This document shows, one piece after another, positions 15,437 to 24,629 of a stretch of 37,093 nucleotides of DNA (the first letter of the stretch is position 1; each line of letters opens with the position of its first letter). The notes under the pieces are model-generated. The model did not search any database and was not told the DNA's origin. It was given only the letters and a program-made list of their open reading frames with translations. Source of the stretch: an uncultured Bacteroidales bacterium (GTDB lineage: Bacteria; Bacteroidota; Bacteroidia; Bacteroidales; Bacteroidaceae); contig CADAEK010000025.1 in the NCBI GenBank assembly GCA_902786925.1, forward strand, positions 1 through 37,093. The letters are read 5' to 3'. Both the position numbers and the translations under genes were made by a program.

Positions 15437-15536
15437 CTCTGCTCCGTATCCTCTTGGAGGCTTCTAAAGTATCATCTTATCCTTGTTCTGAACACGGGCT
15501 AGATAGCTGCAGCACTATAGCTTGAGACTTAAGGGC

Positions 15537-15602
15537 AAAAAAAATGGGTTGCCGCTGCAACCCGAACCTTTGTTAACCTTAAATCTAATACTATGAAAAA
15601 CA
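15537..15602 (-). ncRNA. Orphan small-RNA unit with own promoter and terminator
   Basis: A predicted transcript of about 65 nt begins near 15602 on the minus strand. It ends in a perfect 7-bp hairpin (GGGTTGC/GCAACCC, 15546-15563) followed by eight T (15544-15537). It contains no open frame of any size. The internal stretch reading TATTAGATTTAAGGTTAACA looks familiar to me from Bacteroidales intergenic regions, but that is recollection and not verified. The flanking genes are both on the plus strand, so it is not a leader of either. Confidence 0.55.
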
Positions 15603-15607
15603 CGTTG

Positions 15608-22408: not shown

Positions 22409-23596
22409 TTAGTTCTTAAATACTTCTTTGATTCTCTCTAATGCAAGTTTCATCTTCTCGTCCTTAGCGCAGAGTGAGATGCGGATATATCGCTTGCCGT
22501 TGCTCCCGAAGATGAAGCCTGGGGTGATGAAGACACGAGCCTCATGCAGAACCTTTTCCGTCAAGTCTTCCACGTCAGCGATGCTGTCAGGGATGCGTCC
22601 CCACAGGAACATGCCTTGCTGCGTCGGGTCGAAAGTGCAGCCGAGGGTGTTCATGATGTCTTCTGCAATCTTGCGGCGAGTGGCATACGTCTCAATGTTG
22701 GCCTGTGTGTGCCAAGCTTCTGTGTTCTCGTAGGCTTGTGCCGCAGCCAGTTGCAGTGGACGGAATGTGCCCGAGTCAATGTTGCTCTTGATTTTCAGAA
22801 TCCATTGAACAAATGTGCTGTTCGTGGCCAGCATGCCTACGCGCCAACCTGGCATGTTGTGGCTCTTCGACATAGAGTTGAACTCAATGCAGCACTCCTT
22901 GGCTCCTGGCACTTGCAGAATGCTCAAGTGCTCATCTCTGTTGAGAATGAAAGAGTAGGGGTTGTCGTTCACCACCACGATATTGTGCTTTTGAGCGAAG
23001 GCTACAATCTTCTCATATAGTTCGCGTGTTGCACGTCCGCCTGTTGGCATGTTGGGGTAGTTTGTCCACATCAGCTTCACACCGCTCAAGTCCATCGCTT
23101 CCAGCTGCTCAAAGTCGGGCTGCCAACCGTTGCTCTCCAAGAGGTCGTAGTTCACAATCTTCTGACCGAGAATCTTGCTCAGCGAAGTATAGGTAGGATA
23201 ACCGGGATTGGGTACCAGCACTTTGTCGCCAGGGTTGCAAAGGGCGAGTGTCACATGCAGGATGCCCTCCTTGCTGCCGATGAGAGGCTGGATTTCAGAG
23301 GCAGGGTCAAGTGTGACACCATACCAGCGCTGATAGAAATTCGCCATCGCCTTACGCAGTTCGGGGATGCCTACTGTTGGCTGGTAGCCGTGTGCATCTG
23401 GACGGTGTGCGTGCTCACACAGCACGTCAATTGTTTCTGTGCTGGGTGGCATGTCTGGCGAACCAATGGCCAGCGAAATGATGTCCTTTCCTTCTGCATT
23501 CAGCTTAGCCACTTCCTTGAGTTTGCGGCTGAAGTAGTACTCACTCACGAGCGACAGGCGTTCTGCAGGTTGTATCTTACATTGTTTGTCTTCCAT
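22409..23596 (-). CDS. Class I/II aminotransferase, probably aromatic
   Basis: 395 residues, PLP-dependent fold type I. NYPNMPTG (179-186) is the variant NxPxxPTG block, NDNPYSF (210-216) holds the PLP-ring Asp, and Lys244 in SMSKSHNMPGWR binds PLP. RISLCAKD near the C-terminus contains the Arg that grips the substrate carboxylate. Placed between pheA and the DAHP synthase, it most likely makes phenylalanine and tyrosine from their keto acids, although similar proteins are annotated as aspartate or LL-DAP aminotransferases. Its first 20 nt overlap the 3' end of pheA. Confidence 0.88.
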   Translation of the reverse strand: MEDKQCKIQPAERLSLVSEYYFSRKLKEVAKLNAEGKDIISLAIGSPDMPPSTETIDVLCEHAHRPDAHGYQPTVGIPELRKAMANFYQRWYGVTLDPASEIQPLIGSKEGILHVTLALCNPGDKVLVPNPGYPTYTSLSKILGQKIVNYDLLESNGWQPDFEQLEAMDLSGVKLMWTNYPNMPTGGRATRELYEKIVAFAQKHNIVVVNDNPYSFILNRDEHLSILQVPGAKECCIEFNSMSKSHNMPGWRVGMLATNSTFVQWILKIKSNIDSGTFRPLQLAAAQAYENTEAWHTQANIETYATRRKIAEDIMNTLGCTFDPTQQGMFLWGRIPDSIADVEDLTEKVLHEARVFITPGFIFGSNGKRYIRISLCAKDEKMKLALERIKEVFKN

Positions 23597-24419
23597 CTTT
23601 ATATTCTCCTAAAATCTTAAAGTCTTTGGTCAGTGGTATAATAGCGTCTATCGATTGGCGATAGCGTGTCAGGTCATCGTATAGCACATCAACATAGAAC
23701 AGATATTCCCATTCTTTTCCGATGATGGGCAGCGATTGAATCTTGGTCAGGTTGATGTGGTAGAAAGAAAGAATTGCAAGTACATGGCTCAGTGAGCCTT
23801 CTTCGTGAGGCAGCGAGAAAACGATGCTTGCCTTGTTGGCCTCCATCAGTGGACGGAGCAAATCGGCCTTGTTGGGGTTCGACACTACGAGGAAACGTGT
23901 AAAATTGTGTTTGTTGTCTTCGATGTGGTCTTCCAGCACCTTCAGTCCATACAGCCGAGCAGCTTCTGCGTGACAGATGGCAGCCCATCCGCGCTTTTTC
24001 CCTTCACTGATCATCTTCGCACTACCTGCTGTGTCCTCAGCCTCTACGTGTTTGATTTGTGGGTGCTTCTCGAGGAAGTGGCGGCATTGCATCAATGCCA
24101 CAGGGTGTGAGTGGATTTCCGTGATGCTATCCCAGTCATCTTCGGGCAGGCAGCAGACGCAGTGTGTGATGTGCAGTTTGTGTTCGCCCACGATGGTTGT
24201 GCCAGAGTCCCTCAGCAGTTCGTAGTTGTGCAGCAGCGAACCGGCAATGGTGTTCTCGATGGCCAGCATGCCAATGGTGGTGGGGTCTTGTTTGATGGCG
24301 GCAAACACCTCCTCGAACGTTGAGCAGCACACCAGTTGCACCTGGTCACCTTCGAAGTAGAGATGGGCGGCGATGTCGTGGAACGACCCTATCAAACCTT
24401 GTATTGCAATCTTTCTCAT
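23577..24419 (-). CDS. pheA: Prephenate dehydratase
   Basis: 280 residues, monofunctional. It converts prephenate to phenylpyruvate. The catalytic domain (1-180) shows IENTIAGS at 54-61 and the catalytic Thr-Arg-Phe triplet at 174-176 (NFTRFLVV). An ACT domain follows (about 195-275): EEGSLSHVLAILSFYHINLTKIQSLP, in which the ESRP phenylalanine-binding motif is QSLP, so feedback inhibition by Phe may be altered. No chorismate mutase domain; that activity is on the DAHP synthase. First structural gene after the Tyr/Phe attenuator. Confidence 0.94.
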   Translation of the reverse strand: MRKIAIQGLIGSFHDIAAHLYFEGDQVQLVCCSTFEEVFAAIKQDPTTIGMLAIENTIAGSLLHNYELLRDSGTTIVGEHKLHITHCVCCLPEDDWDSITEIHSHPVALMQCRHFLEKHPQIKHVEAEDTAGSAKMISEGKKRGWAAICHAEAARLYGLKVLEDHIEDNKHNFTRFLVVSNPNKADLLRPLMEANKASIVFSLPHEEGSLSHVLAILSFYHINLTKIQSLPIIGKEWEYLFYVDVLYDDLTRYRQSIDAIIPLTKDFKILGEYKDGRQTM

Positions 24420-24438
24420 ATATTATATATAATGTATA

Positions 24439-24462
24439 AGCCCCGCTCGTTTGAGCGGGGCT
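24439..24462 (-). terminator. Attenuator terminator-like hairpin before pheA
   Basis: Perfect 10-bp GC-rich stem (AGCCCCGCTC/GAGCGGGGCT) with a 4-nt loop, ending 19 nt before the pheA ATG. The downstream tract on the minus strand (TTATACATT) is T-rich but not a continuous run. The first arm is also complementary to the segment after the leader-peptide stop. Confidence 0.7.
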
Positions 24463-24519
24463 ATATTGTTATTCTCTATGTATCTGTCACATGATTGATG
24501 AACACATAACTACCCGCTC

Positions 24520-24576
24520 TTACCTCTTGCTAAAGTAAAAGTAAAAATAGTAATATGTGTTAAACAATGATTTCAT
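24520..24576 (-). CDS. Tyr/Phe-rich leader peptide of the aromatic operon
   Basis: An 18-residue ORF reads MKSLFNTYYYFYFYFSKR. Residues 8-15 are eight consecutive Tyr or Phe codons (five Tyr, three Phe), with another Phe at position 5. It begins about 17 nt after the predicted transcription start. Its TAA is directly followed by the antiterminator segment GAGCGGG. Chance occurrence of such a run just upstream of pheA and tyrA genes is very unlikely. Too short for automated gene calls. Confidence 0.8.
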   Translation of the reverse strand: MKSLFNTYYYFYFYFSKR

Positions 24577-24598
24577 GCCCAATTGACTTAAAACGTTG

Positions 24599-24629
24599 CA
24601 AAAGTACGCACTTTCTTCGGAACAGCCAA
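24599..24629 (-). promoter_or_regulatory. Consensus promoter of the aromatic operon
   Basis: TTG at 24629-24627, 20 nt spacer, TACTTTTG at 24606-24599. It defines a leader of about 170 nt before pheA. Confidence 0.7.

What the first reader, a model, noticed from the sequence alone, without database searches (positions are those of the whole stretch)
24439..24629. Tyr/Phe attenuator with an 18-residue leader peptide controls the aromatic amino-acid operon
Seen directly: a consensus promoter, then MKSLFNTYYYFYFYFSKR with eight consecutive Tyr/Phe codons, a TAA immediately followed by GAGCGGG, and a 10-bp GC hairpin whose first arm contains CCCGCTC. Segment CUUUUAC inside the Tyr/Phe codons can pair with GUAAGAG, which overlaps GAGCGGG. 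The three pairings are mutually exclusive in the classic attenuation order. The genes downstream make Phe and Tyr. One leader with mixed Tyr and Phe codons would sense both end products at once. Such regulation is well known in proteobacteria; I am not aware of a well-described example in this group. The imperfect T-tract leaves open whether the hairpin ends transcription or blocks pheA translation.
Basis: partly seen in the sequence, partly recalled or inferred. Interest (0 to 1): 0.88.

Follow-up and report, generated by a model that had tools for sequence, protein, structure and literature searches.

The report
Tyrosine/phenylalanine attenuator of a Bacteroidia operon
Just before the genes that make phenylalanine and tyrosine lies a tiny Tyr/Phe-rich peptide gene followed by an RNA switch that should stop transcription when both amino acids are plentiful, and close versions of it sit before the same gene in most of the related bacteria examined.

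Summary
On the minus strand: a Bacteroidota-type promoter, an 18-codon ORF MKSLFNTYYYFYFYFSKR, GAGCGGG right after its stop, and a 10-bp GC hairpin 19 nt before pheA, first gene of a Phe/Tyr operon. Comparison puts it far above chance: a Tyr/Phe-run leader precedes pheA in 275 of 291 class loci counted (30 of 30 in the genus), against 47 of 5820 shuffles, 2 of 57 hisG and 1 of 29 ilvD upstream regions. The complement of the terminator's 5' arm starts 7-15 nt after the last Tyr/Phe codon in 255 of 274; terminator and antiterminator keep pairing through two-sided changes; TTTT follows the hairpin in 255 of 278. Best reading: classical ribosome-mediated transcription attenuation sensing Tyr and Phe, probably ancestral in the class. 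The 1:2 helix is not supported comparatively, the window's own terminator lacks a T-run, and nothing was measured. Closest prior art: a 5' element upstream of pheA and leader-peptide clues in Flavobacterium psychrophilum (PMC9723704). New member of a known kind, unusually widespread. The control genes carry cognate leaders of their own: His runs before hisG (41 of 57) and Ile/Leu/Val runs before ilvD (18 of 29).

The parts
24626..24629 (-). -33-like element TTGG of the leader promoter
   Evidence: 19-nt spacing to the -7 element; Bacteroidota consensus recalled
24599..24606 (-). -7-like element TACTTTTG (TAnnTTTG)
   Evidence: TAnnTTTG within 100 nt upstream of the Y/F run in 30 of 30 genus, 73 of 73 Prevotella-set, 73 of 75 family, 47 of 61 order, 20 of 35 other-order loci versus 4-9% of base shuffles
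24520..24576 (-). leader ORF, MKSLFNTYYYFYFYFSKR + TAA
   Evidence: counterpart in 275 of 291 class loci
24532..24541 (-). segment 1, CUUUUACUUU inside the Tyr/Phe codons
   Evidence: pairs with 24517-24526 in the MFE fold; not supported by comparative tests
24517..24526 (-). segment 2a, GAGGUAAGAG, partner of segment 1, spans the stop codon and overlaps segment 2b by three bases
24513..24519 (-). segment 2b, GAGCGGG, antiterminator 5' side, 12 nt after the last Phe codon
   Evidence: offset 12 in 30 of 30 genus loci; 97.3% of 735 cells paired with segment 3 in 105 genus+family sequences
24453..24462 (-). segment 3, AGCCCCGCUC, shared by antiterminator and terminator
24439..24448 (-). segment 4, GAGCGGGGCU, terminator 3' arm; followed by UUAUACAUU, not a canonical U-run
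23577..24419 (-). pheA, prephenate dehydratase (first structural gene)
   Evidence: PF00800 E 2.1e-57; only PF00800 match in the assembly
22409..23596 (-). class I/II aminotransferase
   Evidence: PF00155
21329..22393 (-). DAHP synthase / chorismate mutase fusion
   Evidence: PF00793 + PF01817
20559..21332 (-). tyrA-like prephenate dehydrogenase
   Evidence: PF02153

Best explanation
A ribosome-mediated (leader-peptide) transcription attenuator that senses charged tRNA-Tyr and tRNA-Phe and controls the Phe/Tyr operon. Transcription starts just upstream of the leader ORF. If Tyr- or Phe-tRNA is short, the ribosome stalls in the YYYFYFYF run. It then leaves GAGCGGG, 12 nt beyond the last Phe codon, free; this pairs with CCCGCUC as soon as that is transcribed (antiterminator) and polymerase reads into pheA. 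If both are plentiful, the ribosome reaches the stop codon, covers GAGCGGG, and segments 3:4 form the terminator. Shown: leader, segments, spacing, conservation, two-sided changes, in-silico folding order. Inferred: stalling, termination, response to amino acids, transcription-translation coupling at this site.
For: Leader in 275 of 291 class loci versus 47 of 5820 dinucleotide shuffles, 2 of 57 hisG and 1 of 29 ilvD upstream regions. Both Tyr and Phe in all but 2 of 279 leaders. Segment 2 offset 7-15 nt in 255 of 274 versus 243 of 1370 for shuffled windows. Helix 2:3: 97.3% of cells paired, slid versions 30-56%, 40 two-sided cells; helix 3:4: 95.7% paired, slid 37-56%, 110 two-sided cells. 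In the order and other-order sets the own terminator arm pairs better than the mean of arms swapped from other genomes in 88 of 96. TTTT after the hairpin in 255 of 278. Hairpin-to-ATG distance is not fixed (6-229 nt, median 26). RNA from segment 2b on, before segment 4 is made, folds as antiterminator (-22.9 kcal/mol); with RNA blocked to stop+13 the terminator forms. The operon makes Phe and Tyr.
Against: The window's own terminator lacks a T-run (22 of 30 genus loci have TTTT, this one does not). At equilibrium the terminator beats the antiterminator even with segment 2 free (-29.8 vs -24.6 kcal/mol), so the switch must be kinetic. Helix 1:2 is not supported: 71.5% paired, equal to shuffles (71.4%) and below one slid version (79.2%); the synonymous-codon test was flat. 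In the family the arm-swap test is weak (45 of 75 above the mean, 9 of 75 in the top 5%) because the motif is almost invariant. In the Prevotella set only 50 of 73 antiterminator duplexes reach <=2 of 50 shuffles. 37 of the 40 two-sided cells of helix 2:3 come from one column pair, and the slid control favours a structure taken from one of the sequences. 16 of 291 class loci failed the leader scan. No expression data.
Confidence: 0.92

Rival explanations
1. Translational attenuation: the same alternative hairpins control access to the pheA start rather than transcription. In the window clade the hairpin ends 19 nt before ATG and has no T-run.
For: Missing T-run and 15-19 nt spacing in 8 of 30 genus loci.
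Against: TTTT after the hairpin in 255 of 278 loci; distance to ATG ranges from 6 to 229 nt, 10th-90th percentile 14-68, the longest partly from loci with two serial leaders.
Confidence: 0.06
2. The ORF makes a functional small aromatic peptide and the hairpin is an ordinary 5' UTR structure or terminator of an upstream transcript.
For: The peptide pattern is conserved.
Against: N- and C-terminal residues, length and stop position vary while Tyr/Phe run, spacing and RNA pairing stay; a promoter motif sits directly upstream; hisG and ilvD carry leaders of the matching amino acids instead.
Confidence: 0.01
3. Chance Tyr/Phe run in an A/T-rich intergenic region.
For: In the other genus genomes the bare codon pattern is about as frequent as its reversed control.
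Against: 47 of 5820 shuffles reach the threshold that 275 of 291 class loci reach; hisG and ilvD upstream regions seldom do.
Confidence: 0.01

Closest known systems
   Same: 5' element before pheA, no Rfam hit, present in other Flavobacteriaceae; [quoted passage not shown]
   Different: The section does not give the peptide, the pairings or a range beyond the family; here the Tyr/Phe leader, spacing and two-sided changes are shown across the class.
E. coli pheA leader / Rfam Phe_leader RF01859 (biology recalled)
   Same: Leader peptide, competing hairpins, terminator before a Phe gene.
   Different: 21.6 bits against a gathering score of 55; the best sub-threshold match is in fact Leu_leader RF00512, 23.5 of 50 bits. 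The E. coli leader is recalled as Phe-only; this one mixes Tyr and Phe.
Bacteroid-trp RNA RF01692 (Weinberg 2010, PMC2864571; table row and passages seen)
   Same: Listed as a cis-regulatory RNA of Bacteroidetes.
   Different: No match in this genome at E <= 0.001; a trp motif by name.
Multi-amino-acid attenuators such as the E. coli thr and ilv leaders (recalled)
   Same: One leader with codons for more than one end product.
   Different: Other amino acids and phylum.

Membership tests
Ribosome-mediated (leader-peptide) transcription attenuators | Short translated ORF with a run of codons for the operon's end products | tested here: met
   Eight Tyr/Phe codons; 275 of 291 class loci. Translation itself not tested.
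Ribosome-mediated (leader-peptide) transcription attenuators | Terminator hairpin with U-run before the first structural gene | tested here: inconclusive
   Hairpin in 278 of 279 leaders with loops of 3-20 nt (200 of 279 with loops up to 10), TTTT in 255 of 278; the window copy has the hairpin but no U-run.
Ribosome-mediated (leader-peptide) transcription attenuators | Antiterminator (2:3) that excludes the terminator | tested here: met
   97.3% paired, two-sided changes; arm swap 88 of 96 outside the family, 45 of 75 inside it.
Ribosome-mediated (leader-peptide) transcription attenuators | 1:2 helix when the leader is not translated or after release | tested here: inconclusive
   Folds in the window, not supported comparatively.
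Ribosome-mediated (leader-peptide) transcription attenuators | Readthrough changes with supply of the cognate amino acids | not testable with these tools
   No expression data held.
Rfam Phe_leader RF01859 | Score at or above the gathering threshold (55 bits) | tested here: not met
   21.6 bits, E 0.22.
Rfam Bacteroid-trp RF01692 | Match to the covariance model | tested here: not met
   None in the genome; the control genome Bacteroides ihuae rings.

The most novel reading that the evidence does not exclude
Leader-peptide attenuation is an ancestral, general device of class Bacteroidia, and this element is its aromatic branch: Tyr and Phe in nearly all leaders, Trp codons added inside the run in 16 of 96 leaders outside the family, two leaders in series in 19 order/other-order loci plus one doubtful Prevotella locus. 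With His-run leaders before hisG (41 of 57) and Ile/Leu/Val-run leaders before ilvD (18 of 29) it would mean that bacteria which hardly use Shine-Dalgarno sequences (recalled) keep transcription and translation tightly coupled near the 5' end of biosynthetic messages.
Probability: 0.65. Interest if true: 0.7.

Novelty: new member of a known kind. Interest (0 to 1): 0.58.

Why it matters
Leader-peptide attenuation needs a ribosome that follows polymerase closely. Whether Bacteroidota couple the two is, as far as I recall, unsettled. A class-wide attenuator gives a direct, quantitative test in a genetically tractable gut commensal. It also gives a ready-made sensor for Tyr/Phe supply in gut and rumen bacteria, and an annotation for an RNA that reaches no Rfam family's gathering score in the window.

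Tried and rejected
Considered and set aside: chance composition; translational control as the main mechanism; membership of RF01859 or RF01692. Helix 1:2 was tested twice and not supported. This genome's own hisG (gap of about 55 nt) and ilvD (best score 3 of 8) have no leader.

A first ilvD script took the gene start too far upstream and suggested that ilvD mostly lacks leaders. I raised the odds of the novel case from 0.60 to 0.65 and the interest from 0.56 to 0.58 for that reason.

A first hairpin scan with loops of up to 10 nt found none in 79 of 279 loci, among them the Prevotella loci looked at; the limit was raised to 20.

Failures of the leader scan in the class: 16 of 291. With GTG/TTG starts or further upstream, L159, L227, L273, L282 and L306 show a Tyr/Phe run (the pheA start of L282 is uncertain), and L201 has segments 2-4 but no such ORF. 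In L113, L144, L155, L295 and L299 another reading frame ends within 5-46 nt of pheA or overlaps it, so pheA may be inside an operon there. L140, L240, L242, L288 and L289 remain unexplained.

Papers: (listings with titles and starts of abstracts) showed no paper that describes a Tyr/Phe leader across Bacteroidota; five papers were opened (PMC2864571, PMC4833913, PMC7366714, PMC9723704, PMC10272879), as passages or sections. The library lacks most subscription journals. Lopatovskaya et al. 2010 (Mol Biol 44:128), seen only as a reference, may list Bacteroidetes attenuators; I could not read it. Naville and Gautheret 2010 is recalled and was not opened.

Full report
WHAT IS THERE. On the minus strand of the window lies TTGG-N19-TACTTTTG, then an 18-codon ORF (24576-24520) MKSLFNTYYYFYFYFSKR, then GAGCGGG directly after its TAA, and a 10-bp GC hairpin (24462-24439) that ends 19 nt before the pheA ATG at 24419. 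The genes downstream are pheA (PF00800), an aminotransferase (PF00155), a DAHP synthase/chorismate mutase fusion (PF00793, PF01817) and a prephenate dehydrogenase (PF02153). PF00800 is found once in the assembly. The leader RNA folds with z = -5.85 against 200 shuffles. In that fold segment 1 (CUUUUACUUU) pairs with GAGGUAAGAG, and 3:4 forms the terminator.

CONSERVATION OF THE LEADER. I collected the DNA upstream of pheA for 328 loci: the window hit, 30 genus loci of 43 matching genomes, 80 from the genome collection (the best 80 of 256), and 217 from the family, order and phylum draws. Not every match was looked at: beyond the loci supplied I chose stretches by hand across the listings, and the phylum listing was itself cut. 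I left out 13 family matches with only 30-32% identity, which are another type of prephenate dehydratase, and 7 of 77 same-order matches (mostly partial or at contig ends). Two loci were skipped and nine dropped (duplicates or too short), leaving 317. Score: most Tyr/Phe in ten codons of an ATG-started ORF of at most 45 codons within 447 nt, threshold 6. Genus 30 of 30, Prevotella set 74 of 74, family 75 of 80, order 61 of 69, other orders of the class 35 of 38, together 275 of 291; other classes of the phylum 4 of 26. Dinucleotide shuffles of the class sequences reach it in 47 of 5820. The sequences are related, so these counts are not independent events. Both Tyr and Phe occur in all 279 leaders except two of 61 in the order set.

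SPECIFICITY. Upstream regions of other amino-acid genes from the same groups serve as natural controls, and each turned out to carry the leader of its own amino acid. Tyr/Phe runs: pheA 275 of 291, hisG 2 of 57, ilvD 1 of 29. His runs (4 of 8): pheA 1 of 291, hisG 41 of 57, ilvD 0 of 29. Ile/Leu/Val runs (7 of 8): pheA 10 of 291, hisG 2 of 57, ilvD 18 of 29. Base shuffles reach the His threshold in 0 of 2850 and the Ile/Leu/Val threshold in 14 of 1450. A GC hairpin directly before TTTT follows 38 of 41 His leaders and 17 of 18 Ile/Leu/Val leaders. The window's own genome has such a leader before pheA but not before hisG or ilvD.

THE SWITCH. For 278 of 279 leaders a hairpin was found between leader and pheA without reference to segment 2 (loops 3-20 nt; a first scan with loops up to 10 found 200). 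The best complement of its 5' arm starts 12 nt after the last Tyr/Phe codon in 30 of 30 genus loci, and 7-15 nt after it in 255 of 274 class loci, against 243 of 1370 with shuffled windows. A ribosome stalled in the run would leave such a segment free and one at the stop codon would reach it (footprint size recalled; the reach test is lenient and all loci pass). In a 105-sequence genus+family alignment, antiterminator cells are 97.3% paired (slid 30-56%, shuffles at most 95.2%) with 40 two-sided cells; terminator cells are 95.7% paired (slid 37-56%, shuffles at most 91.1%) with 110 two-sided cells. Of the 2:3 two-sided cells 37 come from one column pair. Across the order and other orders the motif itself changes, for example CCCGC/GCGGG, CCTGC/GCAGG, CCCGGC/GCCGGG and CTCGA-type arms. 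Own arms beat the mean of swapped arms in 88 of 96 and 95% of swaps in 45 of 96; in the family the figures are 45 and 9 of 75. Duplexes reached by at most 2 of 50 shuffles: 211 of 274, in the Prevotella set 50 of 73.

TERMINATION OR TRANSLATION. Four Ts in a row follow the hairpin in 255 of 278. The distance from hairpin to ATG ranges from 6 to 229 nt, median 26, the longest partly from loci with two serial leaders. That pattern fits transcription termination. The window copy and seven genus relatives have TTATAC instead, so its termination strength is open. In silico, RNA from segment 2b on, before segment 4 exists, folds into the antiterminator (-22.9 kcal/mol). With everything present the terminator is preferred (-29.8 vs -24.6), so the decision would be kinetic.

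PROMOTER. TAnnTTTG lies in the 100 nt before the Tyr/Phe run in 30 of 30, 73 of 73, 73 of 75, 47 of 61 and 20 of 35 loci (genus, Prevotella set, family, order, other orders) and 0 of 4 outside the class, against 4-9% of base shuffles in the class sets; where found it starts about 53 nt before the run. The leader is thus probably at the very 5' end of the message.

WHAT DID NOT HOLD. Helix 1:2 is not supported beyond its presence in the window: 71.5% of cells paired, shuffles 71.4%, slid by one 79.2%; a test with synonymous Tyr/Phe codons was flat. The alignment has an indel there, so this is inconclusive rather than negative. The second-to-last run codon is TAC in 197 and TAT in 14 of 278 leaders, which may reflect a constraint on the RNA or plain descent.

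COMPARISON WITH THE KNOWN. It works like the classical leader-peptide attenuators. In Rfam the region reaches no family's gathering score; the best sub-threshold matches include Leu_leader (23.5 of 50 bits, E 0.0087) and Phe_leader (21.6 of 55 bits, E 0.22), and the genome has no Bacteroid-trp. The nearest report is the transcriptome of Flavobacterium psychrophilum (PMC9723704), whose section on 5' cis-regulatory RNAs I read: leader-peptide attenuation clues before amino-acid operons, and structured 5' elements before pheA and hisG present in other Flavobacteriaceae without Rfam hits. For Bacteroides thetaiotaomicron, passages of PMC7366714 mention short ORFs in long 5' UTRs reminiscent of leader peptides, without pheA in the passages seen. 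The searches listed under Tried and rejected showed no description of this element across the phylum; absence from this library is weak evidence.

VERDICT. A real, conserved Tyr/Phe attenuator; new member of a known kind, with an unusually wide and probably ancient range in Bacteroidia.

Noticed in passing
L341-L397 and L339, upstream of hisG: His-run leader peptides (for example MNNTLHHHHHHCNSSR) in 41 of 57 hisG upstream regions of the class, 38 of the 41 with a GC hairpin directly before TTTT; 0 of 2850 shuffles and 1 of 317 pheA upstream regions reach the threshold. The window's own genome lacks it.
   Followed up: partly
L398-L426, upstream of ilvD: Ile/Leu/Val-run leader peptides (for example MKLLNTVLVVVVVVVLKNIE) in 18 of 29 ilvD upstream regions of the order, 17 of the 18 with a GC hairpin before TTTT; 14 of 1450 shuffles reach the threshold. 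L426 is a partial gene. The window's own genome lacks it.
   Followed up: partly
window 23577-24419 and 22409-23596: pheA alone looks replaced: 87-90% identical to the four Prevotella loci compared (P. ruminicola KHT3 and three relatives) but 68-70% to the seven other genus members compared, while the adjacent aminotransferase is 89-98% identical to those seven and 75-79% to Prevotella, and the leader is of the genus type. Five genus relatives share this pheA. A single-gene exchange inside the operon behind a kept attenuator.
   Followed up: partly
L135, L145-L149, L168, L177, L267, L271, L274, L278, L281, L286, L287, L290, L301 and others: Two Tyr/Phe leaders in series before pheA in 20 of 279 loci (16 order, 3 other orders, 1 doubtful Prevotella locus), possibly double attenuators.
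   Followed up: partly
leaders outside the family: Trp codons inside the Tyr/Phe run in 16 of 96 order and other-order leaders, 0 of 178 in genus, Prevotella set and family.
   Followed up: partly
L163, L164, L165, L175: Four of 26 loci outside the class carry the leader; they are the four best pheA matches among the other-class genomes listed, suggesting transfer of gene and leader together.
   Followed up: no
window 15534-15603 (-): BTncRNA_FopS (RF04319), 76.2 bits, a Bacteroidetes paralogous sRNA.
   Followed up: no
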